In this document: positions 752-50,736 of the stretch, piece after piece
How the letters are laid out: every line of letters begins with the position of its first letter
How positions within the stretch are numbered: the first letter of the stretch is position 1
NCBI RefSeq assembly: GCF_964204645.1
Contig: NC_134027.1
Coordinates: forward strand, 22,990,485-23,054,484
Reading direction: 5' to 3'
DNA length: 64,000 nucleotides
From: Tubulanus polymorphus
Taxonomy: Eukaryota; Nemertea; Palaeonemertea; Tubulaniformes; Tubulanidae
Made by a program: the position numbers and the translations under genes
The notes under the pieces: model-generated
Told to the model about the DNA's origin: nothing
Database searches by the model: none
Seen by the model: the letters and a program-made list of their open reading frames with translations, nothing else

Positions 752-1078
752 ACAATATAGACAACGTCATGGATGTGTTGACACCATTGACAGGTTGACT
801 GTTTTGATAAGCTGAACATCTATATTGTCTTCCATTTTTATCCTTATCAGTTGGTACTACTAGACTACTAGTAGATGCCCGTGCACTGTGAGATCCGGGT
901 TTATGATTTACTGTTGGATTGGGTGAAATATCTGTCCAAGTTGTCGTCCCAGAGCTGTACGCCCAGACAATTGTAGACACCGGGTTACTTGAGTCAGTTG
1001 TACACGTCAGAGTTTTTGATGTACCGTGAACAACTGGACCGTTTGGAATTTCAGTCAGTGTTATTGACTCTGGTGGAA
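752..1078 (-). CDS. R1 C-type Ig exon, second
   Basis: 327 nt, phase 1-1. Encodes V-P-P-E-S-I-T-L-T-E-I-P-N-G-P-V-V-H-G, L-T-C-T-T-D-S-S-N-P, V-W-A-Y and R-Q-Y-R-C. It resembles the last C exon of R4 (45088-45414), including the flanking intron. Confidence 0.87.
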
Positions 1079-7000: not shown

Positions 7001-9949
7001 GGGTATGCAATTTTTTTCAAAAAAAGGTTGATTATGTTACTAAAATGTCAGCGTTGTGCACAAATAAAGTGAAATTGACCATGATTCTGGGGCATTTTCC
7101 TGGGGCCATAGCCCCTTAATGCCCCAACTAAAAATGCACTTTAATTACCCGATAATTCATTTGGAAATACTGAAATTTGCCATCAAACCTTTTGTACGCT
7201 AAAATGGAATTGAAACCCACCTTTGAGCTCTCCTTCCATCTAAAATATCATTGCCTAAAAAGTTTTTATCAGAAATCCTTAGAAGCTCCAAGGGAAAGAC
7301 CCTGAACAACCACCACTTTAAGGTAAGCTTGAGTAAATGGAAAGAAATTCAGGTAAGATTCACAGCTAGTAGGTTTACGAAAAACAGAGAAACCTATAAT
7401 CCCGAATTAAGATTTTGTATGAGAACATCAAAAAATGGGTTTTTTTTCATCGAATTCCCACTCGAAGGTAAACTTCTAGGAAGGATAAATAAAGGGAATT
7501 AAGAAATGTCAAAAGATGTCAAGGATGAGATCAGTTGACACTAAACATAAAGTATAATCGACGTAACTGCGCCATAGAAGAGGCGCGAATATAGGGTAAA
7601 ATTTCAGATTCAATGTGTTCTATGAAAAGGTTAGCTAGAGTAGGCGATAGATGCCCGTAGCGAAATCATATTGCGCAAAGAAAATGCCATCATATTGAAA
7701 ATAGGCTCTTCTAGCGCATAATTCTAAAAGATCAACGAGACAGTTAACTGAGGCAGGATAATTCAAATTACAGGACGGGAGTGTACGTTTGATAAAATCT
7801 GAAGTGAGTTCCAGAGGGATGTTAGTGATATCTCTATCACTAACAACATTGACTACATCAAACGAAATGAACTTGTTGCCATTAAGGGTAACATGACGTC
7901 TTGTAGTAAATCCATATCTTGTTTGTTATGAGAACCAGAGAACGAACCAAGAAAGGAGAAAGCGTTTTTTCAATCGAGGATCCAGAAAGATGTCATGAGG
8001 GAGAGCCCCTTCTTGAGATGACAAGATGCGTAAAGGGACATTACTTTTTACGAATCTTAGGGGGGCTGTAAGGATAAGTCGGTAAGCTGGGTAATCGGCT
8101 GGTCAATTTCATTATAAATGTATCATCAGTAGGATGTTTACGTATACTGTGTATTTATTTGGGCAGTCATTTTAGACTGAAGAAGGGTGGCAGCAACCAC
8201 CCGAAATGTTTCTAATATTTCAAATATTAAGTTATCATTCGTAACTCGCAGTCAGTGAATTGTTCAAACCCAGATCACATGGTGAATACAATTTCATAGT
8301 CACTCTTCGTTACTGAACGCGATAAGAGAAATGATATATTATTCAATTCTTACCCACTACAGTTATTTCCTTTTTACTATTTGCATTAGTTGAGAACATG
8401 TTCATGTAGTCGCATGACCATGATGAGAGAAATGAGATATAATTCAATTGCTAATTATTCTTACCTACTACAGTAACTACTTTTCTACTTTCTGAAAACA
8501 TGTTCATGTATTGACATGCCCATCCTCCAGCATCAGACATCTGTACATTAGTTATACGTAAACCGTAACGTCCAGCTGTGACGTCACACTGTCCAGTGTA
8601 CCGAGGTTCAGTAATAGCTCCACGAGGACAGTTTGTCTTATCAAACGAATAATGTACAGTAGGGGTACTGAATGTCATACTGTAACCGCAGAAATCTTTA
8701 CTGGGTGGTGAAACCTGACACTGTACGTCGGTGGTGCCACCTAGTTTTACAACTGCTGGTGTTACAACTGTCGTGATTGTCGTGTCCGCTGCATCTATAC
8801 AATTCTGCTGCTGTCCTAGAATTATTCAATCACCTTAAAACATTTAAAATCGTTCATGTCATCGTGTTCGTATTAATCTAGTCTTTTACAAGTAATTTGT
8901 ACTACATTTGGCCGGGACATACGAAAATCAACGCTATACCGCGAGGTTCGTATTAAGCCATTTCGTATTAACGAGGTTCCAATGTATATGTACCAAACGA
9001 TGATCTCTAGCGAGAGTCCGAAACTTGGTGCATTTTCATCTTGATTCTTGAAAAATTAATATTCGATTTTAAAGTTTTAATTTGTGTATTTACGTAGTGC
9101 GTCTCAAACTCATTAAAGACTGAAAAACAATAGCTAAATACTAAGTAAGCGACGAACTAAGGGTAATGATACAAGTAGAAGAAAATTAACAACCATTGGT
9201 GAAACAATATCTGATTGGTTTAAACGATATTTAGAACATCTTTCACTCATATAACGGTAGATCAAGTCTGAAAAGTTTCTTTTAAGCTATGAATTTATTC
9301 GTCCAACGTTTCGACTATACCCCAATAGGAATCCCCATCTTCAGGAATAACGAGTGAAAAAAAATATGACACATAATGCCATCGAGAACAAAGGAACCGT
9401 GTTTCTCATCACCGCGCACGTCCGAAGAATCAGTGACGAAAATCTGGTAAAAATAGCGCTCGAATAATTTAATAATTTCTGTTGGTTTCTTTTCAATGCA
9501 AAAAAATGGAATACCCCCTGCTCAATAGAATCCTTGTTTATTATTATTTCTTTTTCGTACTTGGAATTATGTAATGTGCATTATCAGCAATGGATCAGGT
9601 TATTGATGCGATGTAGATAGATCGGGATTTAAAACTGTCATTTGCCCTGACATTGGAGATTTCGGTAAGCACAATCCAAAAGTAAAGACTCGGTTCCCTC
9701 ATGCCATCTTCAGTGCATTTTCTACCTAAATCAAAATAAGGAAGTTGACTCCCTCAGGCTCCTCTTCAATCCCCCTTTCATTACAAGGACTAAGTAGAAA
9801 TGTATGCCCCCCGCGTCACTTTGGAGAAGCCAGTGCACAATGAGAAACACGGTATGTATTTTGAATGGCGTTATGTGGTAGTATTTACCTGCTGTAGATC
9901 TCACGCAGAGAAGAACAATCACAAACACACACCAGACTACCGGTACATT
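752..9949 (-). CDS. Receptor gene R1 (IgSF, partial, leaves window at left)
   Basis: Multi-exon gene read right to left. Exons in order: signal 9889-9949, V-like Ig 8465-8815, N-type Ig 6021-6296, then A 4843-5118, B 4412-4714, A 3907-4182, B 3479-3781, C 3034-3360 and C 752-1078. Each Ig exon has AG/GT borders, phase 1-1 and an open frame. The next exon expected from R4 (type D) would begin within a few bases beyond position 1, because bases 1-30 match the intron end just before the D exon of R4. FN3, membrane and tail exons should therefore lie outside the window. The gene is an inverted copy of the R2/R4 block and lacks one A-B pair seen in R2. The initiator exon was not found; it should lie between about 9,950 and 10,900. 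Role inferred: cell-surface receptor of an immune or self-recognition type. Confidence 0.8.
1516..2200. mobile_element. Foldback/MITE-like element with nested insertion
   Basis: Terminal inverted repeats start TACGACGGCGTCCTAG and end CTAGGACGCCGTCGTA, with conserved subterminal sequence including ggccataattatctgcg. It is the counterpart of the 289-bp element at 19193-19481, but about 430 bases of other sequence (about 1662-2090) are inserted. No coding capacity seen. Confidence 0.65.
1679..1726. repeat. Perfect short inverted repeat
   Basis: Two 21-base arms (1679-1699 and 1706-1726) pair perfectly around a 6-base loop. It lies in the sequence nested inside the foldback element; possibly the end of another small transposon. 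Confidence 0.7.
2801..2862 (-). pseudogene. Relic of a B-type Ig exon in R1
   Basis: The minus strand reads V-K-K-R-A-D-Y-V-L, then a small insertion, then Q-Q-I-E-C-K-T, the start of a B-type Ig exon. The exon is cut off soon after the first cysteine and lacks its acceptor. The same relic lies in R2 at 18661-18724, so it predates the block duplication. Confidence 0.6.
3034..3360 (-). CDS. R1 C-type Ig exon, first
   Basis: 327 nt, phase 1-1. Encodes P-P-E-S-I-T-L-T-D-I-P-N-G-P-V-V, K-T-L-T-C-T-T-D-S-S-N-P, I-V-W-A-Y and G-R-Q-Y-R-C-T-A-Y. Canonical GT donor, unlike its R2 counterpart. Confidence 0.87.
3479..3781 (-). CDS. R1 B-type Ig exon, second
   Basis: 303 nt, phase 1-1. Encodes V-K-K-P-A-D-R-V-L-F-N-N-N-Q-Q-M-E-C, Q-W-F-K-Y-S-S and Q-A-Q-Y-R-C. 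Open frame; acceptor tttctag, donor GTAAGTATG. Confidence 0.87.
3907..4182 (-). CDS. R1 A-type Ig exon, second
   Basis: 276 nt, phase 1-1. Starts D-P-P-S-S-V-A-L-Q-G-P-T-S after a tttccag-like acceptor; Cys pair in D-F-T-C-T-A-T-G and A-E-Y-Q-C. Partner of the R2 exon at 17344-17622. Confidence 0.87.
4412..4714 (-). CDS. R1 B-type Ig exon, first
   Basis: 303 nt, phase 1-1. Encodes M-M-K-K-P-A-D-Y-V-L-V-N-D-N-Q-Q-I-E-C, then V-Q-I-Q-W-F and M-N-Q-A-R-Y-R-C. Cys, Trp and Tyr-x-Cys are all in place for a C2-type Ig fold. Confidence 0.87.
4843..5118 (-). CDS. R1 A-type Ig exon, first
   Basis: 276 nt, phase 1-1. Reverse translation gives P-P-G-N-V-T-L-Q-G-P-K-S-P-V-Q-E-S, D-L-T-C-T-A-T-G-G-N-P, and T-D-N-Q-A-E-Y-Q-C-T-A-T-G. 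C2-like Ig in which the core Trp is replaced. Open frame with good splice sites. Confidence 0.85.
5119..6020 (-). other. R1 intron between N and first A exon
   Basis: Intron conserved with the matching introns of R2 (15521-16407) and R4 (42535-43421). A 135-codon open frame (5239-5646, minus) is interrupted in both other copies, so I do not call it a gene. Confidence 0.7.
6021..6296 (-). CDS. R1 N-type Ig exon
   Basis: 276 nt, phase 1-1, bounded by tttacag and GTAAGTATT. Encodes A-P-P-N-G-P-V-L-T-S-Q-P-N-T-A then an I-set-like Ig: L-T-I-T-C, Y-K-W-S-G, and K-T-D-S-N-V-Y-T-C. Same position and near-identical sequence to the N exons of R2, R3 and R4. Confidence 0.88.
6450..8235 (-). mobile_element. 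Decayed Penelope-like element in R1 V-N intron
   Basis: Diverged copy of the relic also present in R2 (13302-15090) and R4 (40328-42095). The minus strand of about 7600-7860 matches the RT region of a Penelope-like protein (F-I-K-R-x-L-P-S motif, then an E-L-C-A-R-R-A-F-F-Q-F-like block). The end near 8174-8212 carries a hammerhead-like core: CTGAAGA, a GGGTGG/CCACCC stem and GAAA. Reading frames are broken. It was present before the receptor block was duplicated. Confidence 0.65.
8351..8420 (-). pseudogene. Duplicated 3' end of the R1 V exon
   Basis: Read on the minus strand this stretch encodes C-D-Y-M-N-M-F-S-T-N-A-N-S-K-K-E-I-T-V-V-G followed by GTAAGAAT. It repeats the last ~70 bases and donor site of the neighbouring V exon (8465-8815), without the 5' part or an acceptor I can recognise. 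It looks like a partial tandem duplication and offers a second, decoy donor site. Confidence 0.6.
8465..8815 (-). CDS. R1 V-like Ig exon
   Basis: 351 nt, phase 1-1. Begins G-Q-Q-Q-N-C and holds an Ig core: V-Q-C-Q-V for the B-strand cysteine, an extra F-C-G, a C-P-R-G and G-Q-C-D-V-T-A-G pair, and the F-strand signature D-A-G-G-W-A-C. The usual Tyr before the last Cys is replaced by Trp, as in all V exons here. The extra cysteines suggest additional disulfides. Confidence 0.8.
8816..9888 (-). other. R1 intron between signal and V exons
   Basis: Non-coding. Bases 9301-9350 resemble a Penelope-type terminal repeat fragment (minus strand: CTGAAGATGGGG ... GTCGAAACGTTGG). Otherwise nothing recognised. 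Confidence 0.5.
9889..9949 (-). CDS. R1 signal-peptide exon
   Basis: 61-nt exon between an AG acceptor (ending tatattcag) and the donor GTAAATAC. It encodes N-V-P-V-V-W-C-V-F-V-I-V-L-L-C-V-R-S-T-A-G, a typical hydrophobic signal core ending in a small-residue cleavage region (S-T-A-G). It starts in phase 0 and ends in phase 1, as in R2 and R4, but its sequence is quite different from theirs. No in-frame ATG; the start codon must be in an upstream exon. Confidence 0.65.
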
Positions 9950-11768
9950 CTGAATATATATTAGAACAATAAATTACATGTGTTTGTCATAAATAAAGTT
10001 TTCATTTCTAAATCAATTTAATCGACGTCTTGTTCGTGGACTTAAAACGATTTAACTATTTATAACCATACGTACATATATTTGTAATCGCAAACAGCAA
10101 TCTATGTAAGATCTATTGACGAATAAGCCACCATAATTGATTTACGTATCTAAACTCGAAATTTTTTGGATCATTTCATTAATGGCCTTTGCTTTGATGT
10201 TGGAGAGCCTAAACAATTCTAAAGCCGTGCTTAAATAAAGTCAAGTCGTGTAAAAATTAATTTGAGTAACTTATGAATCTGAATATGTAGGCCTATAACC
10301 TTTTTTTATTCAACAAATCCATGTACGCAACTAACATATTTTTGGAACTAACACAATTTTCTTGCAGTTGTGAAGTGACTGTGGTGGCTATAAGTAAGAA
10401 GCCAGTGGCCTATACGCGTGTTTTATCACGATTTTACTGCATTATATAGGCCTACATGTACTCACTTGGATGCGTTGAGTGTTCATTTTTTTCCAAATTT
10501 CCTGATGATCAACATATCGATTATTTTGAAAGAAGAAGTTATAGCAAAGTTTTCAAGTATAAACACTCGCTTCCTTTCAACGTCGCAATCAAACACGTAT
10601 GTCAAAACTAAGCCTAACGATTGTGAGGTAATAGAATCACGTAGACGAACACAAACCGGTAATCCAAATTTAGAAAACGTCTAATCAAAGAGAAACTTCG
10701 AAACTGAAAACGTCTGGTCGATTTTCACTTCCTGGTCGCATTATACACACTAGATTTATATCTACACATACCAACATACAATGTAGACCTACCCGCGGCG
10801 TATGTGCCTAGTTGACAGCAGTACCAGTTACTTGACGACATTCTTCTGATTTATAATGCCTACACTCTATGCATAAACAGCTATCATAGTCATATATTCT
10901 TGAAGGTTATTGATTAAGTAGCTTTGTTCATTGTGGGAAAACCCACGCAGTATAGGTCTTGTATTTTCGTGTAAACATCGGCATTCAACACTGAATATCG
11001 ATGATGAACACGATTCTTGTCGGTATCATTCGCTATATTTACCTAACTTCCTGGTCGGAATAGAAATACGTCTTTTTAAAATATTCATTCGACAGAAATT
11101 CTAAGCGCTCTTCATCCTGTCAATACGTAGATCAGCAATTTGCTTGAATGTTGTAAGTTAATCGTTTTACTATGAAGTCTAAATTAAAAAAAAAATCTTC
11201 CTTTCGCTTTGCTCTTGTTTTTTATTTACGTAACGAAGGTCACAAAACTCAATTGCTTAAGGTCAGAAAAACATTTTATTTTTTTTTCAGTGTTATCACA
11301 TTCGATTTTAGTTACAGTTTCTTTATTTGTTATGATATTTGTCTAAAGTATGTGTTATGTTATGATATTTGTATACTATTTTCTTATTGAAGGTATTCTG
11401 TTGTTCTTTGAAAAGCATATAGAGCATGTATGGAAAGGTAAGGACGAGAGCTACCACGTATTTCATCCAAATTCATTTTTGTAGATTAAATCTATGCAGT
11501 TCCATTGATTAACTGAACCTTGTGACTGATAAGTGCGTGGTAAATCATTATCTATCGAGATCCAAACGAAAACCGATTTCGAAGCCGATATCACACGTGA
11601 CAAATTAGTAATGCACACATTAATTTTCGGTCCCGGTTTGACAGTGTTATTTATCAACAAAATTTTTTGATTAACAAATTCACATCTAGCGCAGACAGAC
11701 ACCCCTGATATTCTAACATCGAGCAGATTGTGAAATCACGCTGCTTCAGTACATTATCTTCATTACAG
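9950..11768. other. Divergent intergenic region between R1 and R2
   Basis: Holds the unseen first exons and presumably the promoters of both head-to-head genes. The duplicated block shared with R4 starts near 10894 (matching 37941). The 88-codon frame at 10418-10684 has no recognisable domain. I see no clear promoter motif. Confidence 0.5.
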
Positions 11769-11820
11769 AAGTGTTTGGTAGGGATTGTGGTATCATTTCT
11801 AATGTGGACAGGAATAAACG
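11769..11820 (+). CDS. R2 signal-peptide exon
   Basis: 52 nt after ttcattacag and before GTAATA. Encodes K-C-L-V-G-I-V-V-S-F-L-M-W-T-G-I-N-G, a hydrophobic signal core. The exon ends in phase 1. The only internal ATG is too far downstream to leave a signal, so the start is in an unseen upstream exon. Confidence 0.65.
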
Positions 11821-28300: not shown

Positions 28301-28380
28301 AATCTGGTTAACATTGGTATGATTTTTGAGTAAATTTTGAAATTAAATTGGAGGCAATCTTTATTGTCCTTCATTTTAGA

Positions 28381-28576
<196 letters not shown>

Positions 28577-38852: not shown

Positions 38853-41800
38853 GTAATATACAGTACAGATTTCTACTTGCAAAGCCGACCACAAGTGACA
38901 TGATTAATTCATTTTGCATTGTGAATGTAACAAAAATTATTAGAAGACATGCAGTCATCGGCTTTTCATGAGATTTGACATCAGGATAAAAGTTCTTTGG
39001 TCCATTAGTAAGAATGCCCTAATCCGCGTACGCTGTAGATGATTGAAGAAATCCCGCAATTCGAATTTGTATGAAAAATTTATTTCTTTATCGTATAAAA
39101 TAAATGGGATTTCTTCAATTAATTCCTTAATCCACATAATGACAAAATATTTAATGCGCCATAGGCAATCCTGTCCTTTTTCAAAGCAAATTTGACTATG
39201 AGAAGTTTTGTACATCCTCTACCCGACCACCATTACGATTTCCACAAATTTCCACTCGGACTCACTTCAGCATATCAAGGCCTGACAACTAATAGATTGA
39301 CGCAGTTTATACTCAACACAAATGACCTTTACACGTTTCGTAATTCAAATATATATTCTTGCAACGATTACTCGGACGCAATTTTATAAACGTTTTTCCT
39401 GATAAAAGTATACCAAGGGAATGCACTGTTAATGATATCTTGAGGAAATACAATCTGTGAGCAACGTTGCTAGAATGTTTTGACATCATATGATTGATTT
39501 CATGCGAAATATGTAATGAATAAATCATGTTTCTAAAATCACGTTGATCCAGTTGATAATCAGCCTTGCGTAAGTAAACATCTGACTAATTACACGTTTT
39601 TGTCACGAATTAATAATTCTTTCTGGATAGTTTCTCAACAACCTCCTCTGCATTTATAGAATTTATAGGCTTCGTATAGTGACTTCAACTCGAGTTATTA
39701 TGGACCAGTTGATATCTGTCTAAAGTCGACTATAAACAAACTTTCATTTCCTTCCATTGAAAATTTCAGGTCAGCAACAGAACTGTATCGACGGAGCGGA
39801 TACGACACTCACGACAGTTGCAACACCAGCAGTTGTAATACTAGGTGGCACCACTGTCGTACAATGTCAGGTTTCACCACCCGGTAAACATTTCTGCGGT
39901 CTCAGAATAACAATGTCTGGCCAATCGGGACATTTTGCATTTGACGAGATTAACTGTCCTAGGGGAACTATCACTGGGTACACTGGACAATGTGACGTCA
40001 CAGCTGGACGCTATGGTATACGTATCACTAATGTACGGATGATTGATTCTGGAATGTGGAAGTGTGATTACATGAACTCTTTTCCGAATAGTAACACAAT
40101 GATTACTGTAATAGGTAAGAATGATAAAAAGGTCAATAATATCTCATTTCTCTTATCGTGTTCAGTGATGAAGAGTGACTGTGAAATTGCATTCACCATT
40201 TGATCTAGGTTTGAACAATTCACTGACTGCGAGTGTGACGAGTAATAACGTTAAAGCTTTATTAATTAAATTAACGTGAGTAAAACGTGTAACATTTTAC
40301 ACGTACTCTAATCATTTGTAGCATGTTGATCTATAAGAGTAAAATCTCGCAATAAATGAATTGATTGCTAACTTGTTTAATATTTGAAATATTAGAAATA
40401 TTTCGGGTGGTTGCTACCACCCTTCTTCAGTCTAAAATGACTGCCCAAATAAATACACAATATATGTAAACATCCTACTGATGATAAATTTATTATGAAA
40501 TTGACCAGCCGATTACCCAGCTTATCGACTTATCCTTACGCCCCCCCCTAAGATTCGTAAAAGTAATGTCCCTTTACGCATCTTATCATCTCAAGAAGGG
40601 GCTCTCCCTCATCTCTCTGGATCCTCGATTGAAAAAAACGCTTTCTCCTTTGTTGGTTCGTTCTCTGGTTCTCATATCAAACAAGATATGGATTTACTAC
40701 AAGACGTCACGTTACCCTTAATGGCAACAAGTTCATTTCGCTTGATGCAGTCTCTCTGTTCACAGCATCTCTCTGGAACTCACTTCAGATTTTATCAAAC
40801 GTTAACTCCCGTCCTGTAATTTGAAGTTTCCTGCCTCAGTTAACTGTCTCGTTGATCTTTTAGAACTAGCGCTAGAAGAGCCTATTTTCAATTTGATGGC
40901 ATTTTCTTTGCGCAATATGATTTCGCTACGGGACTCTATCGCCTATTCTAGCTAACCTTTTCTTAGAACACATTGAATCTGAAATTTTACCCTTTATTCG
41001 CGCCTCTTCTATGGCGCAGTTATGTCGATTATATTTTGTGTTTAGTGTCAACTGATCTCATCCTTGACATCTTTTGACATTTCTTAATTCCCTTTATTTA
41101 TCCTTCCTAGAAGTTTACCTTCGAGTGGGAGTTCGATGAAAAAAAACACTTTTTTGGATGTTCTCATACAAAATCTTAATTCGAGATTAGGTTTCTCTGT
41201 TTTTCGTAAACTTACTAGCTGTGAATCCTACCTGAATTTCTTTAACTTAACTTAAAGCGGTGGTTGTTCAGGGTCTTTCCCTTGGGCCTTGGATTTGTGA
41301 TAAAAACTTTTTAGGCCATGAGATTTTACATAGTAGGGGAGCTCAAATGTGGGTTTCAATTCCATTTTAGCGTACAAAAGTTTTGATGGAAAATTTCAAT
41401 ATTTCCAAATAAATGATTGGGTAAAAGTGCTTTCTTGCATTTTTGGTTTGGGCATTAAGGGGCTATGGCCGCTCAAAAATGCCCAAGAATCATGGTCAAT
41501 TTCACTTTATTTGTGTACAACGCTGAAATTTTAGTAACATAATCAACCTTTTTTTTTAAAAAAACTTGCATACCCGGACAAAGTTTTAAAAGTATCTTCC
41601 TCTGTTCTGTTCTCACTGTCCTGATTGTAACCTTTTTATATTGGGGAAACTGGGAAGAATCAAGGAACATAAACGAGATGCTTTTAAGAGGGTGAAATTA
41701 GAAAGTGTGGGGTAGTCCACCATTTTTTGCAAATCGGAGATACTTTTGAATTTCCTGGAGCCAATATTGCTTTTCCAAACAGCAATCTCACTATAGACAA

Positions 41801-44800
41801 CACATAGTAAGAATCCGCTTTTGATTTGTACTCATTCTGACCGCTCTGTCAACCTCAATAAAGGTTTTAGCCCCCATTACATCTGTTTTTCAAAATATGT
41901 CAGTACTCCTGTCCCCATTACTTAATGTGCAGTAATTCGTATCTTATTTCATGCATAGACCATGTATTTATGTACATGCGCTGCATTTAATTTTGCAAGT
42001 CATTTTAGACTCAAGGAGAGTAATATTTCTTACATTCGAAGTAAACTTTTTAGCTATCAATTCATTTATTGTGGGATTATACTCTCATCGTTTTATCACG
42101 GATATTTTGTGATCTACAACTGATTCATGTTGATTTATTAATTTTGAAGTGGATGATTTCTTTTAAATTGCCAAAATCTATAATATATAATGTAGCAGAC
42201 GCATTGAAAATGAACCATCGAAGACCCCGTGGTTTTCAATATAGTTTCATATTTACAGTGCCCCCGAGTGGACCAGTTCTAACATCTCAACCAAACACCG
42301 CCGACAAAAACATCGTCGCAGTACAGGAGAATTCACAATTAACAATCACATGTGACGGTTCACAGCCTGGAGCTACAGGACTGACGTATAAATGGAGTGG
42401 TGTCAATCTATCAGGACAGTCTAATAATAAACTCAGTTTTACACGAATCAGTAAAACTGATTCAGGTGTTTATACATGTAACGCATCGAATATAGCAGGA
42501 ACAGTTGCTGGTAATATTACTATCAAAGTTCTATGTAAGTATAACGTTAAGATAGATGAACACACGTGATTTACCTAGTATTCATATTAGGCAATTTGTA
42601 ACAGAAATTTGTTGGAAATAACCCAGTCAATGGATTCAAAGGAGTTCGTTTTTCAAATCTGTGTTTCATCGATTTCGATAAAGGAACGAAATATTTATAG
42701 GGACCTACTTATATCTGCGTTGAATGCTGGGGAAAACGCGCGCTACTTCTTTACGGAGTTTATTATGAAGTGCATTTATGAGGCTGAATTATTTTAAAGT
42801 TTCAGATTCTATCCTTATCAAATGACATTTTGTTACATCGGGATAAAGCAATTATCTAGAATAATGAAGTAGGCAAGAAAATATCGTCAGATTACCACAA
42901 AATATTAATCTAAGCGCGTTAATCCTTTAAACGCGGACTCTTCTGAGGCATATTTTACCCTATTCAATCGGGTGTGTTCTAGACCCCTTATGTCCCATTA
43001 ATTAAAGCAGATATACATATTTCATTCAAATGAATCTTCCCATCGATCGATATTCACGATATTTCCTCTGAAGTATATTCGTCACGATTGTAATCGGGTG
43101 AGTTGCGGCTTTGAAAAATATGCGGCAGTTTACCAGCGAACCGTAACGATTAAAACATCAATAACGTACGAGAAATTTATTCATGCGAATGCATTGTTGG
43201 ACTTGACTCGATACTTCATATTTCATATCTATTTGAATGAGAGAAATAACTCAAAAAAGCTTCATGCAAAGGCTTATGTTTGTAATAAATATGATTTTTA
43301 ATGCATTTCAAATGAATTTGGGCCGGTAATCTGAAATATGAAATTGTACAGAATAATCTGTTGCTGTTGTACATATAACTCATCGATAAAGATAATCGCT
43401 TTTTAACACTTTTAATTTCAGACCCGCCAAGTAGTGTTACATTACAAGGACCGACGTCACCCGTTCAGGAATCCGTATCTGTTAACGTAAAGTGTACAGC
43501 TACAGGGGGTAACCCAGTACCGAACCTCGCCATAACTAGAACACCAGGGGGCAGCACGATAAAACAGGGAATAAGCCCTCTAACATATTCAACATCCGTC
43601 ATTAAAACAGATAACCAGGCAGAATATCAATGTAGAGCTACTGGCGCTGGTATATCAACACCAATGATTTCTAATAAAGTTCAATTAAATGTCACCTGTA
43701 AGTACTGCATTTAGTTTACAAATTACTTGTTATTCCCATGAAGTAATTGCGGTTCTATTTTTGATATAATTCTGTTTCGTCAACACACCCGGATTTTGAC
43801 AATATCGAGAACAAATGATTTCTAGTTCAAGCAACAACGCTGAAAATGGTGAAGAAACCAGCAGATTATGTATTAGTAAACAATAATCAACAGATAGAGT
43901 GTAGAACTGACTCGTCAAACCCGGCTGTACAGATTCAGTGGTTCACAAATTCCTCTACAACATGGACAGTACTTGCCTCTCAATCAGCTACGAGTCAAAC
44001 TAGTGCAGCCTATCACGGGTTTATGGCTACTAGCAAATTATCTATTACTGCGACTAAAACCATGAATCAGGCTCGATACAAATGTCAAACTGGAAATCTT
44101 TACAAGGATACAAAGATTACCGTTTACTGTAAGTTTAAAATACATTAGTTCTAAAATATATCATTTCAGATCATTCGAAAATATTTCGCACCGGATTAAT
44201 AACCAAATGAAACCTGTTTCTAAACTACACGTAGAGGTTCATTAATGACAGTGAATTGAGAATTTATATGAAATTCGTTCTATTTTGAATTCGTCCATTT
44301 CAGACCCGCCAAGCAGTGTTGCATTACAAGGACCGACGTCACCAGTTCGGGATTCTACTTCCGTTGACTTCACGTGTACAGCTACAGGGGGTAACCCGGT
44401 ACCAAACCTCACCATTACTAGAACACCAGGGGGCAGCACTGTGAAACAGGGAGTTAGTCCTCTAACATATTCAACATCCGTCAATAAAACAGATAACCAG
44501 GCAGAATATCAATGTACAGCTACTGGGGCTGGTATACCAACACCAATGATTTCTAATAAAGTCATATTAACGGTCAACTGTAAGTACCCGGATTGTTTTA
44601 ACTTCAAATTATTGGTTAATCTCATGCAGTCAATTCAAATACACCTTGGTTGCAAACAATGTCCTCGGGAATTTGTATTTACTTGCGACAATCCAAAATT
44701 TAGTTCTAGCAACAACACTGACAATGGTGAAGAAACCGGCAGATTATGTATTAGTAAACAATAATCAACAGATAGAGTGTAAAACTGACTCGTCAAACCC

Positions 44801-47800
44801 GGCTGTACAGATTCAGTGGTTCACAAATTCCTCTACAACATGGGCAGTACTTGTTTCTCAACCAGCTACGAGTCAAACTAGTGCAGCCAATCACGGGTTT
44901 GTGGCTACTAGTACATTATCTATCACTGCAACTAAAACCATGAATCAGGCTCGATACCGATGTCAAACTGGAAATCTTTACAAAGATACAACGATAACCG
45001 TTCACTGTAAGAGAAAATCACATGTTCGCATCTTTGAATGACCATCTAATAAAGTATCAATCATGACTTTCAATGTTATATCTTCAGTTCCACCAGAGTC
45101 AATAACACTGACTGAAATCCCAAACGGTCCAGTTGTTGAAGGTACATCAAAAACTTTGACGTGTACAACTAAATCAAGTAACCCGCTGTCTACAATTTTC
45201 TGGGCGTACAGCTCTGGGACGACAATATGGACTGATATTTCACCCAGTCCAGCAGTAAATCATAAACCCGGATCTCAAAGTGCACGGGCATCTACTAGTA
45301 GTCTAGCAGTACCAACTGATAAGGATAAAAATGGTAGACAATATAGATGTACAGCTTATCAAAACAGTCAACCTGTCAATGGTGTCAACACATCCATGAC
45401 GTTGTCTATATTGTGTGAGTGTTGAATAGGCGATTTATCTTCTTGATAAATGAAAATGCACAATAAATAGATGTATTCGTAGCTGTTCGGTAGAGGTCTT
45501 GGATTACTGAGGCAATGAAATGAAAAATTATCTTTTAATTTTGTAAAACATAGTAGTTAGTGTATATCAATTAGTGTATCAATCAAATCCACGAATGATT
45601 AATTCGTCACAGAAAACTTGTAAAAAACTGATATGATTTCATATGAGGGAATTTTACTCCATTTATCAGTTACTTTTTATAGCCGATGTCCGCTGTAAAA
45701 AAAACCAGTATGACTATAGTGAACTGATATTTATCTCAGCGTAGAATTAACAAATAAAAACCCTACGAAAGCGTCGTTGTGTTCTTACAAGTGAACTTTA
45801 CTCCATGTATTAGTGATATTTTATCACCGATGTCCGATGTAAACAACCAGTATATACACAGTACAACGACAGCGTCCGGGGGACATAATTACTTTGCATC
45901 GAAGGAAAACATTCTAAAACAATTCATCTATCTTTATTCTAAGTTCTATTCCGAATTTCATCCGTATTTTGTTTTAATTCTACTCCGTTACTCAACGGGA
46001 TCAAATTCCTGATAGCATTAGTGCAACTGGTACATATCCTCATTTGAGACTACACTGTACATTCTTTCATATTTCAAGTGCTGGAAAAATTACTCTTGTA
46101 TTTTCTAGAAACTTTTTATTCTATATACACTGGATACAATATTACATATTTAGTTCAATTCTACAATAGATGCACCGCAGCTTTCTTCACAAGTTGAACC
46201 CGTTGCCGCAAATATAGGAGAAAGTGTTAGATTTACGATAAACTACGATGCGAATCCGCAAGCGACAACTCTCAACTGTAGACACAATTCAACAAATGAC
46301 CGACGGAAAATGAAAAATACTAGTTTAACGCAGTGGAATGTCATCATACAATCAGTTCAGGCGGCTGATTTTGGATCTTATTCGTGTAGACTCAATAACT
46401 CAGTTGGTAGCATAGATTTAACACTGAAACTCACTGAGACTGGTAAGAATCATGTGCTATTTCGAATTATATGTTTTTTTTAGAAATTCGCAGTCATTTG
46501 CACTATAGCACTATTTACCACTTATCAATACTAATAAAACCTGCAAATATCGATTGCAGCCTGAAACCTATTTTCAATGATAACTCTTCTGTTAGTCGTT
46601 CATCAATTGATAATATTTGAGTTGTCGGATGTCTGGAGGGATGCTGGGCCCAGGGTTCAGAGTAATACCGGAGTAACACTCTGAATAACACGAGACTGCA
46701 TTTTGCTGAACTGGGATCCCAATAAATTAGTGCAGCGCGCGAACTATAAAACGAATTTCTTTTTTTTTCTTATTGTTTCAGGACCTCCCAAAACACCGTC
46801 AAATCTGTCAGTTATTGCAAAAACAGCCATTTCTGTGACGCTGAGTTGGGTGTCTGAATTTGAGGGTGGTACCAAACAAACGTTCGCTGTCAGTTACAGG
46901 GCTTGGAATTCCATACAATTCGTGAATAAAGCTGAAATACCCGATCCCGGTTATAGAAAACTGGTGCAAACGAAAATAACCGGTTTAAAACCGGCAACTG
47001 ATTACCAGTTCAAAGTGAAAAGTGTCAACTTAAATCCTGGTGATAATACAAGTCCATTTACTGATATAGTTACAACTAATACAAATGGTAAGATTGAAGG
47101 CTTGTTAGATATGTAGGTTTTATAAGATATAAATACAGGCCTATTTTTAAGTCCGTTGGAATAATTAAACGTAAATTCCTCATTTCTTTAAGTTTCTGAT
47201 TAGGATAATTTTGTTTGAGTTGAATTCCTCATTCTCGGAAAATCCTCATTGCGTGTCATCGAAGAAATTCAAACAAAAAGCTGCTTCGGATTATTTTACC
47301 AGTAAACTTTGCCGATGTCATTCACATTCGACGTCGCATCATTTCCGGTCAAATTCAGAATCAAGGAGCTTCCCGTTGATACGAATATAGGAATCGGAAT
47401 ACGTAGCGACATACGTGCCTCCTCGATCCCCGATCTTGAGAATTCGGCTGTTAGTTCCAGCTAGTGGGATTGGCTGCAGGTGCTTCATTCTGGATGATTG
47501 TGTTGATGATATAATTTTTTCTGCTCTTTTTTTTAAATCGAATTCATGGTTTCTAATTTTCTAGCTATTCCAAGCGCTATAACCACCGTATTGAAGCAAG
47601 CGACAGTAACACAGCAAGGAAATAGTGTCCTGATAAAAATGTCGTCGTTTCCGTCGAAGTACAGCGTCTACGTGAAATACTGTATCAAACATACAAACGA
47701 ATGTTTTAATTCTACGAAACAAGAAAGTACTGGCGGTTCGATTAGTATTGAGATTAAAATCGATCCCGATCAAGCATACAGTTACCAACTGATTGTAACT

Positions 47801-50736
47801 GAGAGTAGTGACGTGATTCTGAGCCATCAGGTTGAAATTCCAGGTAAATATTTGCTGGTTAGTGTCGGTAAACCAAGATCCAAACGTTGAAAAGAGAAAG
47901 ATAAACAAACAAATAAATGCATAGATATCCCAACCACGCCTATAGTCATTTTGCTAGTTCGCTTTTAATGAAAAATATCTCTGGTGAAATCCAGGCCCAT
48001 CGATACTTCCTTGTCATAATTTGCACATTTTATTTTCCCATTTTTCGATCCTCTCAGTTACTACCAATGTTGCGTTGATCGGAGGTGTTGTTGCTGGTGT
48101 ATTGTTGGTCGCCATCATCGTTATTGTGTTCGTGTTTCTATTCGTGAAAGGTCGTCGAGACGGTCAATGGATCTGGACAAAATACTGCACGAAAAGGTTT
48201 ATGTTTCTTTTTGTTTATACGTTACTAGAAGTTTCCTCTTCTATTCGCTAAGCTTAATCGAATGTCAATAGATTAATTTCCATGCTGAGCAATAGACTCT
48301 TATTTTGTCTTTAAGGTATGTCCTACCCGTTTGTGTCCTATTCCCTTTTTAGATGGGCCAAAGAAAAAAGCAATGCCGTCCTTTGATTTGTACGAGCCAT
48401 AAAAAACGATAGTCCTTTTTTCAACAATAAGTGTCATTAATTCCACCAATGACTTCATTAATTTTGACGATAAGGACATATTTCGTGATGTAAAAGTGGG
48501 CAATTTTCGGTGATATATTTCAAAAATCAGAATATTATAAATGGTCTCGAAACTGGTTGTACACGTTAGTTACACCACGAGAAGATTCGAATCCCAATAT
48601 TCCATTTAACCGATCCCTTTCACTAGCGACAATTATATTTTCAAAATGTGTAATCGACGTGTAAATAATGCAGCGAAATCATTCTTTCATTTCAGAAAAA
48701 CTGGAGAATCACAAGTTGGTAAATGAAGTAGAAATAGATTTGTTATTCGATGGGAAATATAATATAATGATAATATTATCAGTAATTTCATCATTATTTG
48801 AATTACAGGCCTTCTAGGGTTTCATCGGTTTTCCATACACTGAATATTTTTAAAACGAATACGTAACATCAATTCTATGATATTTTTGATAATAGCGTCA
48901 TTCTTGAACAGAATTGTTCTTATAATTTCAGTTTATTCGAACACGAAGGAATCCCCGTGTATGTATATTCGATGCATTTTCTGCCTTCGTGTCTCACTGT
49001 GAATTGAGTTTACTATCGAAAAATATGATATTTCAGACTCTTACGCCACGGTAACACCGAACGTAAATGCGGCTTTTGAAGGTGGTAAGTCAATTATCAT
49101 TAAATCACTTTTTCAATTTAACTTATTATACGTACATTTCTATGAAAACATCTATGAGAAAGTTTACAAAATTTTAGTCTCACCAGTGGCAAGATGTCGT
49201 CGACATCTGTACCAACTATTTTTGTTCCAAATCCTCACAGCCGCTATTCCAAAGTGCCACCTTATCATTTTAGGGATACGAATCATTTTTCTTATCTCAT
49301 AGAATTTCAGGGCTTTTAAAGATTTTATCAGTTTTTACGAAACCCCACAAGGTGAAAACTCATTTTTCCGTGGCCACTGAGTAGAGACAATAGCTTGATG
49401 TAAGTGCTTAATGACCTCACCATCTTCTAACCAGTCTCACTGCTTCTATTCTACCCCCTCCTGAACGGCGCTAGCTATCCTTTACATGTCCCTATATTCT
49501 ATTATAGCAACTAAATGCTCTTCTATCTTTCCAACAAACTCCCACCTTGTAATCTGAGCCATTTGCCATCAGTGTGCACACTGCACACTCTACTCATATA
49601 TACATTTAACTATTGAATCTACACCAAAAAATAATCTTCCGTTCGAACGGAAAGGTTTGTGGCCTCGAAAAAAATATGTATTTCTCAGCATGTTACCATA
49701 GGTTTTCTATTTACTTACACTGAATATTATATTTTTTCAATCTTGGAATAATTTTCATCATTTCAGTCTATTCAACCAGTAATCAAGCCCATGGCACAGA
49801 TCTGTGTATGTTTATTCGTTGCATTTGATACTTTCTCATTTCACTGCGAATTTAGTTTACAATTTATGGAATATGACATTTCAGACTCTTACGCCGCGGC
49901 CACAAGGAGCGTAAACAAGGCTTTTAACGGTAGGTCAATTATCATTGAATTAAGTCACACATTTCTATGAGAAAATCTAGAAAATCTAGGAGACAATATA
50001 GAAAAATTCTAACGAAGGGCTAGCTATCGTAGACATTTTGTTTCAATCATCCTTGACCTAGCCTCCGCGCCTGCCTTGTCATTTTCGGGAAAGTGAGCAT
50101 TTCATTAATCCGCTTGCATTCTTAGTTTTCCTTCGTTAAAATCTGGCTTCTGAAGATATTTTACTGTTTTCTAAAAACACTGAATATGTGATATTAGGAA
50201 ATTCATACATATCATCTATGTTTTTCTGGATATAATTGATTTTATATTTATTCCTTGAACCGAATTTCCACCATTGCAGTTTAATCAAACAGTAATGAAG
50301 CATATGACAAAGACTCGCGTATGGATTATATTCGTTTCATCTGAAACCGTCTTATCTCCCTGTGAAATGCGTTTACTATTGATAAAATCATATTTCAGAC
50401 TCTTACGCTGAGGAATCACTGTATGTAAATGTAGCTTTTGGCGGTATGCAAGTCATCATTAAATCACTTCATCGATTATCATTAACCCATACCATAAAAT
50501 TCATCGATAGACATCATTCTAAGCAAACAATTTAGAATCTTCACAAAAGACTTAGATATCGTCGGGTTTTTCAACTACTCGTCACCTAAGCTCCGCGGCC
50601 GCTTTATCATTTTTTTTGGGATAGTGATAACTATGTGTTTTGTTTGTTTCCTTCATTAGAAGCAGACTCTGTAACTGGTGACCAGAACCATTATGAAGAA
50701 GTTATTATGGAACTTTTTACTGACTCGAAAAACTAG
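38801..50736 (+). CDS. Receptor gene R4 (Ig/FN3 receptor with ITIM-like tail)
   Basis: Exons: signal 38801-38852; V 39770-40114; N 42259-42534; A 43422-43697; B 43826-44128; chimeric A 44304-44579; B 44704-45006; C 45088-45414; D 46170-46442; F1 46782-47087; F2 47565-47843; TM 48058-48196; t1 48696-48718; t2a 48932-48958; t3a 49037-49084; t2b 49767-49805; t3b 49885-49929; t2c 50280-50318 (contains TAA); t3c 50399-50443; t4 50666-50736 (TAG). This is the most intact gene: all extracellular exons are open and in phase. The t2-t3 pair is present three times. The first two t3 copies have lost the key tyrosine; the third has S-L-Y-V-N-V, an ITIM fit (S/I/V/LxYxxV). Because t2c has an in-frame stop, the ITIM is reachable only if t2c is skipped. 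Inferred role: inhibitory-type cell-surface receptor. Confidence 0.82.
39042..39119. repeat. Short inverted-repeat element in R4 first intron
   Basis: Counterpart of 12010-12092, with a few bases lost from the second arm. Confidence 0.5.
39770..40114 (+). CDS. R4 V-like Ig exon
   Basis: 345 nt, phase 1-1, intact. G-Q-Q-Q-N-C, V-V-Q-C-Q-V, C-P-R-G-T-I-T-G-Y-T-G-Q-C and D-S-G-M-W-K-C-D-Y-M-N, then I-T-V-I-G|GTAAGA. Serves as the reference for the broken R2 copy. Confidence 0.88.
40328..42095 (+). mobile_element. Decayed Penelope-like element in R4 V-N intron
   Basis: Same insertion as in R2 (13302-15090) and R1, with inverted terminal segments near 40331-40375 and 42040-42090. Broken RT (about 40780-41000) and GIY-YIG (about 41640) remnants are on the plus strand. 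Confidence 0.72.
42259..42534 (+). CDS. R4 N-type Ig exon
   Basis: 276 nt, phase 1-1. V-P-P-S-G-P-V-L-T-S-Q-P-N-T-A, L-T-I-T-C-D-G-S-Q-P-G, Y-K-W-S-G, D-S-G-V-Y-T-C-N-A-S. Confidence 0.88.
42535..43421 (+). other. R4 intron between N and A exons
   Basis: Aligned with the R1 and R2 introns. Short frames (42609-43301) are not kept between copies. Confidence 0.7.
43422..43697 (+). CDS. R4 A-type Ig exon
   Basis: 276 nt, phase 1-1; read in the frame fixed by its splice phases. P-P-S-S-V-T-L-Q-G-P-T-S-P-V-Q-E-S, V-K-C-T-A-T-G-G-N-P, A-E-Y-Q-C-R-A-T-G. Donor GTAAGTACTG. Confidence 0.85.
43826..44128 (+). CDS. R4 B-type Ig exon, first
   Basis: 303 nt, phase 1-1. V-K-K-P-A-D-Y-V-L-V-N-N-N-Q-Q-I-E-C, I-Q-W-F-T-N-S-S, Q-A-R-Y-K-C. 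Confidence 0.87.
44304..44579 (+). CDS. R4 chimeric A-type Ig exon
   Basis: 276 nt, phase 1-1. P-P-S-S-V-A-L-Q-G-P-T-S-P-V-R-D-S-T-S matches the second A exon of R2 (17344), as does the intron before it. The end (K-V-I-L-T-V-N) and the following intron (GTAAGTACCCGG...) match the third A exon of R2 (20003-20278). It therefore looks like a fusion of two ancestral A exons. Confidence 0.85.
44704..45006 (+). CDS. R4 B-type Ig exon, second
   Basis: 303 nt, phase 1-1. Starts L-A-T-T-L-T-M-V-K-K-P-A-D-Y-V-L-V-N; I-Q-W-F-T-N, Q-A-R-Y-R-C. Flanking introns match the third B exon of R2. Confidence 0.87.
45088..45414 (+). CDS. R4 C-type Ig exon
   Basis: 327 nt, phase 1-1. P-P-E-S-I-T-L-T-E-I-P-N-G-P-V-V-E-G, L-T-C-T-T-K-S-S-N-P, F-W-A-Y, R-Q-Y-R-C. 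Donor GTGAGT. Confidence 0.87.
45415..46169 (+). other. R4 intron between C and D exons
   Basis: Matches 1-751 (reversed) and partly 21118-21720. A 77-codon frame (45779-46012) shows no domain. Confidence 0.65.
46170..46442 (+). CDS. R4 D-type Ig exon
   Basis: 273 nt, phase 1-1. A-P-Q-L-S-S-Q-V-E-P-V-A-A-N-I-G-E-S, T-T-L-N-C-R, A-D-F-G-S-Y-S-C-R-L-N-N-S-V-G. Confidence 0.85.
46782..47087 (+). CDS. R4 FN3 exon F1
   Basis: 306 nt, phase 1-1. P-P-K-T-P-S-N-L-S-V-I, V-T-L-S-W-V-S-E-F-E-G-G, I-T-G-L-K-P-A-T-D-Y-Q-F-K-V, N-T-S-P-F-T-D-I-V-T-T. Confidence 0.92.
47565..47843 (+). CDS. R4 FN3-like exon F2
   Basis: 279 nt, phase 1-1. A-I-P-S-A-I-T-T-V-L-K-Q-A-T-V, Y-S-V-Y-V-K-Y-C-I-K-H-T-N-E-C, A-Y-S-Y-Q-L-I-V-T-E-S. 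Donor GTAAAT. Confidence 0.8.
48058..48196 (+). CDS. R4 transmembrane exon
   Basis: 139 nt, phase 1 to 2. T-T-N-V-A then hydrophobic span L-I-G-G-V-V-A-G-V-L-L-V-A-I-I-V-I-V-F-V, F-L-F-V and stop-transfer K-G-R-R. The membrane segment differs clearly from R2/R3, so this exon has a different history. Weak donor GTTTAT. Confidence 0.8.
48696..48718 (+). CDS. R4 tail micro-exon t1
   Basis: 23 nt (phase 2 to 1): K-T-G-E-S-Q-V. Same length and borders as t1 of R2. Confidence 0.68.
48932..48958 (+). CDS. R4 tail exon t2a
   Basis: 27 nt, phase 1-1: V-Y-S-N-T-K-E-S-P. Keeps Y-S-N; shortened relative to R2. Confidence 0.65.
49037..49084 (+). CDS. R4 tail exon t3a (tyrosine motif lost)
   Basis: 48 nt with donor GTAAGT (45 if the weaker GTGGTA is used): S-Y-A-T-V-T-P-N-V-N-A-A-F-E-G. 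The motif tyrosine is Asn (TAC to AAC). Confidence 0.65.
49767..49805 (+). CDS. R4 tail exon t2b
   Basis: 39 nt, phase 1-1: V-Y-S-T-S-N-Q-A-H-G-T-D-L. Second copy of t2; Y-S-T replaces Y-S-N, so the YxN pattern is lost. Confidence 0.62.
49885..49929 (+). CDS. R4 tail exon t3b (tyrosine motif lost)
   Basis: 45 nt, phase 1-1: S-Y-A-A-A-T-R-S-V-N-K-A-F-N. T-P-Y is T-R-S, so no phosphorylatable ITSM tyrosine. Confidence 0.62.
50280..50318 (+). CDS. R4 tail exon t2c with in-frame stop
   Basis: 39 nt with intact acceptor (attgcag) and a GTATGG donor. In phase it reads V then TAA (TAT-TCT became TAA-TCA). If spliced in, the tail ends before the ITIM; if skipped, frame is kept. Confidence 0.6.
50399..50443 (+). 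CDS. R4 tail exon t3c with S-L-Y-V-N-V motif
   Basis: 45 nt, phase 1-1: S-Y-A-E-E-S-L-Y-V-N-V-A-F-G. Matches the ITIM consensus and YxN. Acceptor atttcag, donor GTATGC. Confidence 0.7.
50666..50736 (+). CDS. R4 terminal tail exon t4
   Basis: 71 nt: D-S-V-T-G-D-Q-N-H-Y-E-E-V-I-M-E-L-F-T-D, S-K-N, then TAG. Y-E-E-V conserved; nine residues longer than t4 of R2. Confidence 0.7.

What the first reader, a model, noticed from the sequence alone, without database searches (positions are those of the whole stretch)
752..50736. Invertebrate cluster of modular Ig/FN3 receptors with ITIM/ITSM-like tails
Four large paralogues and one fragment combine a V-like Ig, arrays of C2-like Igs, FN3 domains, one membrane span and short tails with TxYxxV or SxYxxV motifs. 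Seen: exons, membrane span and motifs. Known: in vertebrates TxYxxV/I (ITSM) and S/I/V/LxYxxV/L/I (ITIM) recruit SH2 proteins in immune receptors; cnidarian allorecognition Ig-like proteins also have such motifs. Inferred: this is an immune or allorecognition receptor family, possibly independently evolved. I do not know of a description of this exact architecture.
Basis: partly seen in the sequence, partly recalled or inferred. Interest (0 to 1): 0.85.

Follow-up and report, generated by a model that had tools for sequence, protein, structure and literature searches.

The report
Paired two-tail immunoglobulin receptor cluster
A spiralian invertebrate carries a large cluster of duplicated cell-surface receptors, some in back-to-back pairs with similar outer parts but two different signalling tails, an organisation like that of vertebrate and sea-squirt recognition receptors.

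Summary
The exons are real. The window holds four paralogues (A minus; B, C, D plus) and a broken V-less fragment. Each paralogue combines a V-set-like Ig, I/C2-type Igs, one FN3, an unrecognised membrane-proximal domain, a membrane span and tyrosine-motif tail exons. They belong to a family with 30 near-full V exons: 28 on chromosome C3 and a pair on C9.

Short tails carry YSN, [TS]xY[VM]NV and YEE[VI]. Long tails carry nine or ten Yxx[ILV] motifs and a conserved C-terminus. Seven head-to-head V pairs exist: all seven minus partners lead to a long tail, and six of seven plus partners lead clearly to a short tail, including the C9 pair. Ectodomain exons show no significant sorting by tail class. 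That is the layout of paired receptors.

"ITIM/ITSM" is only one reading: YVNV and YEE[VI] are published Grb2 and Src SH2 ligands. Signal polarity is unresolved and positive selection is not shown. B, C and the fragment carry broken frames; D has a stop-bearing tail exon that must be skipped. Expression, ligand, polymorphism and species are unknown; Hox genes indicate Spiralia. An immune or allorecognition role is plausible but unproven.

The parts
752..8815 (-). Gene A (minus), part in window: V 8465-8815; IgA 6021-6296; IgB 4843-5118 and 3907-4182; IgC 4412-4708 and 3479-3775; IgD 3034-3360; IgC remnant 2763-2861; IgD 752-1078. Continues left of the window with IgE, FN, FN2, TM and LONG tail (last exon match C3:22985147-22985353).
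   Evidence: exon map and splice phases; long tail
8816..12744 (.). 3.9-kb head-to-head interval between the V exons of A and B; candidate shared promoter region (function inferred).
   Evidence: V exon positions and strands; no repeats of 30 bases or more in 8900-12700
12745..25376 (+). Gene B: V 12745-13080 (frame broken at its end), IgA 15245-15520, (IgB, IgC)x2 16408-18051, IgD from 18168, IgC remnant 18663, IgB 20003, IgC 20415, IgD 20791-21117, IgE 21721-21993, FN 22210-22515, FN2 23186, TM 24126-24285, SHORT tail to stop 25376.
24695..25376 (+). Gene B short-tail exons: 24695-24717; YSN 24929-24970; TPYVNV 25053-25097; YEEV plus stop 25333-25376.
   Evidence: AG/GT and phase checked
29191..34991 (+). 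Gene C: V 29191-29541, IgA 29783-30058, IgB 30963-31238, IgF from 31455 (frame broken inside), IgE 31964-32236, FN 32600-32905, FN2 33312-33593, TM 33819-33978, tail 34223-34251, YSN 34407-34457, TPYMNV 34525-34569, YEEI plus stop 34945-34991.
39770..50736 (+). Gene D: V 39770-40114, IgA 42259-42534, IgB 43422, IgC 43832, IgB 44304, IgC 44710, IgD 45088-45414, IgE 46170-46442, FN 46782-47087, FN2 47565-47843, TM 48058-48196, tail exons 48696-50736.
48696..50736 (+). Gene D tail exons: 48696-48718; YSN 48932-48958; 49037-49084; 49767-49805; 49885-49929; stop-bearing YSN exon 50280-50324 (must be skipped to reach the rest); SLYVNV 50399-50443; YEEV plus stop 50660-50736.
   Evidence: the same stop is in sister genes P1 and P2
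53039..54155 (+). Fragment E: V-less paralogue (IgB, IgE piece, frame-broken FN). An FN2 (C3:23054765) and a YVNV tail exon (C3:23056397) assigned to it by order lie right of the window.

Best explanation
This is part of a lineage-specific, clustered family of type I IgSF receptors in a spiralian animal, built as paired receptors. A recurrent unit is a head-to-head gene pair: a minus-strand gene with a long tail (nine or ten Yxx[ILV] motifs, NPxY-like motifs and a conserved C-terminus) and a plus-strand gene with a short tail (YSN, [TS]xY[VM]NV, YEE[VI]). Shown: exons, splice phases, family size, pairing, two tail classes, no significant sorting of ectodomain exons by class, constraint on tails. 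Inferred: duplication and exon exchange keep the ectodomains of the two classes alike; engagement by a cell-surface or microbial ligand leads to Src-family phosphorylation; the short tail recruits Grb2-, Src- and perhaps SHP-2/SAP-type SH2 proteins and the long tail a different SH2/PTB set, so one recognition gives two outputs. Which tail activates and which inhibits is not known.
For: 30 of 42 V matches cover at least 112 of 118 residues with no stop counted inside: 28 on C3, 2 on C9. Seven divergent V pairs lie 3.6-10.7 kb apart. The next tail downstream of the minus partner is long in 7 of 7; of the plus partner, short in 6 of 7 with an FN exon between. The C9 pair, whose tails were looked up only after the idea was formed, fits. 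Long-tail last exon: 11 of 11 genome matches on minus. YVNVAF pattern: 32 hits against 16 for the reversed control; 14 are in family loci, 12 plus and 2 minus. Nearest-paralogue test, class set by strand: V 7 of 13, IgA 7 of 14, IgB 14 of 24, IgC 9 of 22, IgD 11 of 18, IgE 8 of 14, FN 7 of 11, FN2 7 of 12 on the same strand (P 0.2-0.8); TM1 7 of 7 (P 0.029). IgC exons of minus genes M2 and M1 are 99.7% and 99.3% identical to one of plus gene B. Tail pN/pS 0.29-0.53. Published ligands: pYVNV with Grb2; pYEEI 0.5 uM and pYEEV 1.1 uM (IC50) with Src SH2 (PMC2888578).
Against: No transcripts, ligand, tissue or polymorphism data. No domain has omega above 1 on a tree. No charged residue was seen in the middle of the membrane spans read, so the vertebrate activating-chain arrangement is not seen. 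B, C and E have broken frames, and D needs an exon skip. A first exon with start codon and signal peptide was not identified with confidence. 16 of 30 near-full V exons are not in a head-to-head pair. Two short-tail genes lie on the minus strand outside pairs, and the plus partner of one pair has no FN exon before the next tail. The sorting test has low power, and not every exon in it belongs to a gene whose tail was found.
Confidence: 0.6

Rival explanations
1. A neural or epithelial adhesion family: expanded adhesion molecules giving cells surface identity codes, with tails used for junction or cytoskeletal signalling, not immunity.
For: The best non-cluster FN match, C6:2228152 (39% identity), lies in a gene with four Ig exons, fn3, a further exon and a membrane span in the 6 kb fetched. 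Its Ig region matches SYG-2, an adhesion molecule, at E 5e-12. C2-set_2 passes its Pfam cut-off in one of ten gene-D stretches and two C6 exons. Grb2 and Src motifs also fit adhesion signalling.
Against: The same C6 Ig region matches Fc receptor-like 5 better (E 9e-18), and CD22 is also matched, so the PDB does not single out adhesion molecules. V-set N-terminal domain, head-to-head pairs, two tail classes with similar ectodomains and many broken copies are more usual in recognition or immune families (general knowledge).
Confidence: 0.25
2. The two pair partners are two chains of one heterodimeric receptor, co-expressed from a divergent promoter, with the short and long tails acting together rather than in opposition.
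For: Head-to-head spacing of 3.6-4.0 kb in five of seven pairs, kept on two chromosomes. In Botryllus, fester-family/FcoR neighbours are co-expressed and thought to heterodimerise (PMC12065747, section 11 read).
Against: Similar ectodomains suit shared ligands as well as dimerisation. 16 of 30 near-full V exons are unpaired.
Confidence: 0.25
3. A decaying repeat of receptor genes, mostly pseudogenes, whose tails carry tyrosines by descent with no present function.
For: Broken frames in B, C and E, a shared stop-bearing tail exon in D, P1 and P2, gene remnants.
Against: Of the near-full exons that passed the coverage filter, only one (B's V) has a stop; frame-split exons were dropped by that filter. 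Tail pN/pS 0.29-0.53, FN omega 0.29.
Confidence: 0.1
4. Simple ITIM/ITSM inhibitory receptors, signalling through SHP-type phosphatases.
For: TPYVNV and TPYMNV fit TxYxx[VI], above shuffling (165 and 203 of 5000 shuffles reach it); SLYVNV and STYSEL fit the ITIM pattern. pYVNV is also compatible with SHP-2 (recalled, not tested).
Against: YVNV and YEE[VI] are published Grb2 and Src ligands; B and C have ITAM-like spacing; the ITIM matches in D and the long tail are not above shuffling (1375 and 1706 of 5000), and only one of 12 long-tail tyrosines fits.
Confidence: 0.25

Closest known systems
Vertebrate paired receptors (KIR/LILR, FcR-like, Xenopus XFL)
   Same: IgSF family, modular Ig domain subtypes, two signalling classes, birth-and-death evolution (PMC2413239, passages read).
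   Different: Spiralian, with FN3 and an unrecognised membrane-proximal domain; both classes carry their own tyrosine tails and no mid-membrane charged residue was seen; head-to-head pairs.
Botryllus fester family / fester co-receptors (FF/FcoR)
   Same: Neighbouring gene pairs on two chromosomes, V-type Ig, tails with ITIM or Yxx[ILV] core motifs (PMC12065747, section 11 read).
   Different: Sushi domains there; none among the Pfam matches printed here. Here both partners have Ig/FN3 ectodomains of one family. A chordate, so independent origin is likely (inference).
Oyster CgIgIT2
   Same: Molluscan IgSF membrane receptor with immunoreceptor tyrosine motif: five Igs, TM and an ITAM (review PMC11999971, section 15 read).
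   Different: No pairs, two tail classes or FN3 mentioned in the section read. A primary paper on it is not held.
Hydractinia Alr allorecognition proteins
   Same: Invertebrate IgSF receptors in a genomic complex with tyrosine motifs in the tail (recalled).
   Different: Cnidarian, other ectodomain layout (recalled); not compared by sequence.
Nephrin / SYG-2 type adhesion molecules
   Same: C2-set_2 Ig arrays followed by membrane-proximal FN3 and one membrane span (layout recalled); the C6 relative matches SYG-2, though Fc receptor-like 5 better.
   Different: Here a V-set N-terminal domain, a tandem family and short tyrosine cassettes in two tail classes.

Membership tests
Paired receptors (as a mode of organisation) | Homologous ectodomains shared between two signalling classes | tested here: met
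   same exon types in both classes; V, IgA-IgE, FN and FN2 show no significant sorting by strand/tail class, the tails do; low power
Paired receptors (as a mode of organisation) | Genomic clustering | tested here: met
   28 of 30 near-full V exons on C3, 21 of them at 22.80-23.21 Mb
Paired receptors (as a mode of organisation) | One class activates, the other inhibits | not testable with these tools
   needs signalling assay; motifs are ambiguous
Vertebrate KIR/FcR-type paired receptors | Activating members with charged membrane residue pairing with an ITAM adaptor | tested here: not met
   no charged residue in the middle of the membrane spans read; both classes carry tyrosine tails
ITIM receptors | [SIVL]xYxx[ILV] in the tail | tested here: inconclusive
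   one in D (SLYVNV) and one in the long tail (STYSEL), neither above shuffling; none in B or C, which have TxYxx[VI]
ITIM receptors | Recruits SHP-type phosphatases when phosphorylated | not testable with these tools
   needs binding assay
ITAM receptors | Yxx[LI]x6-12Yxx[LI] | tested here: inconclusive
   ITAM-like spacing in B, C and the long tail (71, 74 and 53 of 5000 shuffles reach it), none in D; V often replaces L/I at +3
Botryllus FcoR | V-Ig, sushi, two C2 Igs, TM, long tail | tested here: not met
   no sushi among Pfam matches of ten gene-D stretches; FN3 instead
V-set IgSF | V-set domain at the N-terminus | tested here: met
   16 of 16 match V-set at E<=0.01; one sister passes the curated cut-off, two window copies do not. 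N-terminal place assumed: first exon not found
Allorecognition / immune receptor | Polymorphism, immune-cell or contact-zone expression, functional effect | not testable with these tools
   one genome, no reads or transcripts
Hydractinia Alr | Sequence or domain homology | not tested
   no Alr sequence searched

The most novel reading that the evidence does not exclude
A spiralian animal has independently evolved a self/non-self or pathogen recognition complex built from head-to-head paired IgSF receptors. One partner has a Grb2/Src-type short tail and the other a poly-tyrosine long tail, and exon exchange keeps their recognition faces matched across the two signalling outputs. It would parallel, without common descent, vertebrate paired receptors and the Botryllus FF/FcoR pairs.
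Probability: 0.35. Interest if true: 0.85.

Novelty: new variant of a known kind. Interest (0 to 1): 0.62.

Why it matters
If true, it adds Spiralia to the lineages in which a clustered family of paired immunoglobulin receptors arose, and it offers a compact natural test of how one kind of ectodomain is coupled to two signalling outputs. It makes a testable question of whether divergent gene pairs with matched ectodomains are a repeated solution to recognition.

Tried and rejected
Positive selection: pairwise counts suggested dN above dS in the second Ig (IgA: median 1.12, 49 of the 87 pairs with dS above 0.02), but a tree-based count gave omega 0.95, not above neutral (P 0.66). V is 0.64. I do not claim diversifying selection.

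Species: mitochondrial COX1 found nothing. Hox homeoboxes show an ordered cluster with Lox5, Lox2, Lox4 and Post2 types (naming recalled), hence Spiralia. Molluscan haemocyanin gave no match, but no control rang, so it says nothing. rRNA and a model I recalled as an annelid linker did not complete.

Signal peptide exon: two similar hydrophobic exons upstream of C and D (seeds) have no start codon in frame as I read, and the scan gave no common candidate; left open.

The idea that tail class follows strand by artefact was rejected: two short-tail family members are on minus.

The further exon of the C6 relative sits where FN2 does, but a profile comparison was not significant (E 0.15, 23% identity); I do not call it homologous.

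Structure prediction of the V domain was not possible. No repeats of 30 bases or more at window 8900-12700. No Rfam match at gathering score and no tRNA in the window.

Not in print: nine library searches on such receptors or genomes (one search was on SH2 ligands) listed no spiralian family of this architecture by title or abstract start. Three lists were partial (20 of 216, 15 of 24, 10 of 82) and most subscription papers are not held, so this is weak.

Full report
WHERE IT LIES. The window is C3:22990485-23054484 of a 267.8-Mb, 77-contig genome. Ten homeobox exons on C6, all on plus, form an ordered run of Post2, Lox4, Lox2, Antp, Lox5 (KLNGP parapeptide), Scr, Hox4, Hox3, Hox2 and Hox1 types (gene names by recall). 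That points to a spiralian; the species is unknown.

THE OBSERVATION. Ten gene-D stretches were scanned with Pfam: V-set 20.8 bits (below its cut-off of 26), at least one Ig model above cut-off for each of the six other Igs scanned, fn3 39.1 bits. The next exon ('FN2') has no match reaching a cut-off, and a 12-sequence profile of it found nothing better than E 0.8 in the PDB. A 264-kb stretch (200 kb upstream plus the window) was mapped by tblastn with exon seeds and splice borders were chosen by phase. The Ig and FN exons placed there have AG/GT borders at phase 1-1, which the script required. TM exons are phase 1-2 and the first tail exon 2-1; the other internal short-tail exons of B, C and D are again 1-1, and five long-tail exons of gene A can be read 1-1. 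So Ig modules and tail cassettes can be lost, gained or exchanged without a frame change. Of the exons aligned nearly end to end, one has a stop, the V exon of gene B (frame-split exons were dropped by that filter).

STATE OF EACH GENE. A (minus): its window exons are open, with an IgC remnant; its IgE, FN, FN2, TM and tail lie left of the window. B has a frame break at the end of V. C has a frame break in its fourth Ig exon. D is open, but one tail exon (50280-50324) begins V-stop, as in sister genes P1 and P2; skipping it keeps the frame. E is a V-less fragment with a broken FN; the FN2 and YVNV exon that follow in order lie right of the window, beyond a Penelope-like element and a LINE.

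SIZE OF THE FAMILY. A V-exon search gave 42 matches from 45 candidates; 30 cover at least 112 of 118 residues with no stop counted, 28 on C3 (21 at 22.80-23.21 Mb, one at 24.34 Mb, six at 24.90-24.93 Mb) and two on C9. The FN exon gave 33 matches; 25 cover at least 95 of 102 residues: 24 family copies at 69-100% identity, one with a stop, and the C6 relative at 39%. FN2 gave 26 matches. In the 264 kb, units of about 41 kb repeat as minus gene, plus gene, V-less fragment; in the third, genes C and D stand between B and the fragment. Of the six V exons near 24.90 Mb I read three (L046, L047): each is followed by IgA, and no FN or FN2 seed matched in the 20 kb. In L046 a hydrophobic exon follows and a YEEI-like reading lies further on (splicing not checked).

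TWO TAIL CLASSES. Short: YSN, then [TS]xY[VM]NV, then YEE[VI] before the stop. Long: PPPN(Y)NDI, DVYARV, DPYSSI, EPIYAQV, DPIYSNV, EPLYSQV, ENPYQTI...NPYQDV, DNPAF/Y, KEPIYLHV, STYSEL and a charged C-terminus. For the PPPN and IYSNV exons the script found no borders; for PPPN I read them from the sequence, and the IYSNV exon remains unverified. In the 264 kb all 7 long-tail last-exon matches are on minus and all 9 short-tail loci on plus. Genome-wide, the long-tail last exon has 11 matches, all on minus. The degenerate YVNVAF pattern has 32 exact hits against 16 for its reversed control; 14 lie in family loci, 12 on plus and 2 on minus.

PAIRS. Taking adjacent divergent near-full V exons less than 15 kb apart gives 7 pairs (14 of 30), spaced 3.6, 3.6, 3.8, 3.9, 4.0, 6.5 and 10.7 kb (computed; a partial V lies inside the 6.5-kb one). 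Following each strand to the next tail: 7 of 7 minus partners reach a long tail (in one of them FN is broken), and 6 of 7 plus partners reach a short tail with an FN exon between. The seventh has its next short tail 19 kb on and no FN exon found in between. The tails of the C9 pair were looked up after the idea was formed and fit it.

ECTODOMAINS AND TAILS. For each exon type in the 264 kb I asked whether the nearest paralogue is on the same strand, which there matches tail class wherever a tail was found: V 7 of 13 (P 0.40), IgA 7 of 14 (0.52), IgB 14 of 24 (0.27), IgC 9 of 22 (0.78), IgD 11 of 18 (0.25), IgE 8 of 14 (0.33), FN 7 of 11 (0.20), FN2 7 of 12 (0.33), TM1 7 of 7 (0.029). IgC exons of minus genes M2 and M1 are 99.7% and 99.3% identical to one of plus gene B. 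Exon exchange or gene conversion between the classes is the simplest reading; small numbers, shared ancestry and exons of genes without a found tail limit the test.

SELECTION. Tree-based counts give omega V 0.64, IgA 0.95, IgB 0.53, IgC 0.59, IgD 0.59, IgE 0.56, FN 0.29, FN2 0.46. None is above neutral; FN is the most constrained. Pairwise IgA ratios above 1 do not survive the tree. Tail pN/pS, summed over all pairs: long last exon 0.48, NPYQ part 0.40, PLYSQV 0.29, DVYA 0.39, YVNV exon 0.31, YEE exon 0.53. Gene conversion can distort all of these.

MOTIFS AGAINST CHANCE. Each tail was shuffled 5000 times; the number of shuffles that reached the observed count was: TxYxx[VI] B 165, C 203 (none in D or long); YEE[IVL] B 31, C 24, D 38 (none in long); YxN B 201, C 439, D 950, long 1352; ITAM-like spacing B 71, C 74, long 53 (none in D); Yxx[ILV] B 297, C 247, D 520, long 0 (9 motifs in 12 Tyr). 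Strict ITIM: none in B and C; D 1375, long 1706, so not above chance in a single tail.

HOW IT MAY WORK. Shown: the motifs and their conservation. From the literature: pYEEI and pYEEV compete for Src SH2 with IC50 0.5 and 1.1 uM, and pYVNV binds Grb2 SH2 tightly and Src weakly (7.9 uM) (PMC2888578, passages read); Grb2 prefers pYxNV, and CD22 uses such a site for inhibition alongside ITIMs (PMC5302901, passages read). So a Grb2 site does not fix the sign of the signal. Inferred: two different adaptor sets recruited by a shared kind of recognition face.

RELATIVES. The best non-cluster FN match is C6:2228152 (39%): in the 6 kb fetched, four Ig exons, fn3, a further exon at the FN2 position (similarity to FN2 not significant, E 0.15) and a membrane span. 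In the PDB its FN region matches titin best; its Ig region matches Fc receptor-like 5 (E 9e-18), then SYG-2 (5e-12), DSCAM and CD22 among others. This is too general to name the ancestor.

COMPARISON. Paired vertebrate receptors (PMC2413239, passages) share modular Igs, two signalling classes and turnover. Botryllus FF/FcoR genes form neighbouring pairs on two chromosomes with V-type Igs and Yxx[ILV] tails (PMC12065747, section 11). Oyster CgIgIT2 has five Igs, TM and an ITAM (PMC11999971, section 15). In what I read, none has the FN3-containing, two-tailed, head-to-head layout seen here. I conclude that it works like a paired-receptor family by organisation; membership in a named family was not met or not testable.

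LIMITS. No RNA, reads, second individual or second species was available. Near-identical tandem copies could in part be assembly duplicates, but the C9 pair and diverged copies could not. The first exon is not identified.

Noticed in passing
window 55262-57715 (-): Penelope-like element with an 817-codon open frame (stop to stop) holding reverse transcriptase and a GIY-YIG domain, between fragment E and the FN2/tail that follow it.
   Followed up: partly
window 58975-63404 (+): Non-LTR retroelement: a 534-codon frame without Pfam match at E<=0.001 and a 920-codon frame with endonuclease and reverse transcriptase, in the same gap.
   Followed up: partly
C3:24896082-24932844 (part in L046, L047): Six near-full V exons; the three read have V plus one Ig and no FN seed match, and in L046 a hydrophobic exon follows: a possible third, short class of the family.
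   Followed up: partly
C3:23059904-23098580: Two tandem long-tail genes about 22.6 kb apart with identical scores for V, FN and FN2 exons but different long-tail scores: a recent duplication, or partly an assembly copy.
   Followed up: no
C6:5318180-5634747: Ordered spiralian-type Hox cluster, ten homeoboxes on one strand.
   Followed up: partly
window 28378-28545: TA-type microsatellite directly after what looks like the first bases of an IgB exon, upstream of gene C's V exon: probably an exon remnant (read).
   Followed up: no
C1:8389034-8477077: Dense array of FN3 exons over about 88 kb, probably a titin-like giant gene; identity not checked.
   Followed up: no
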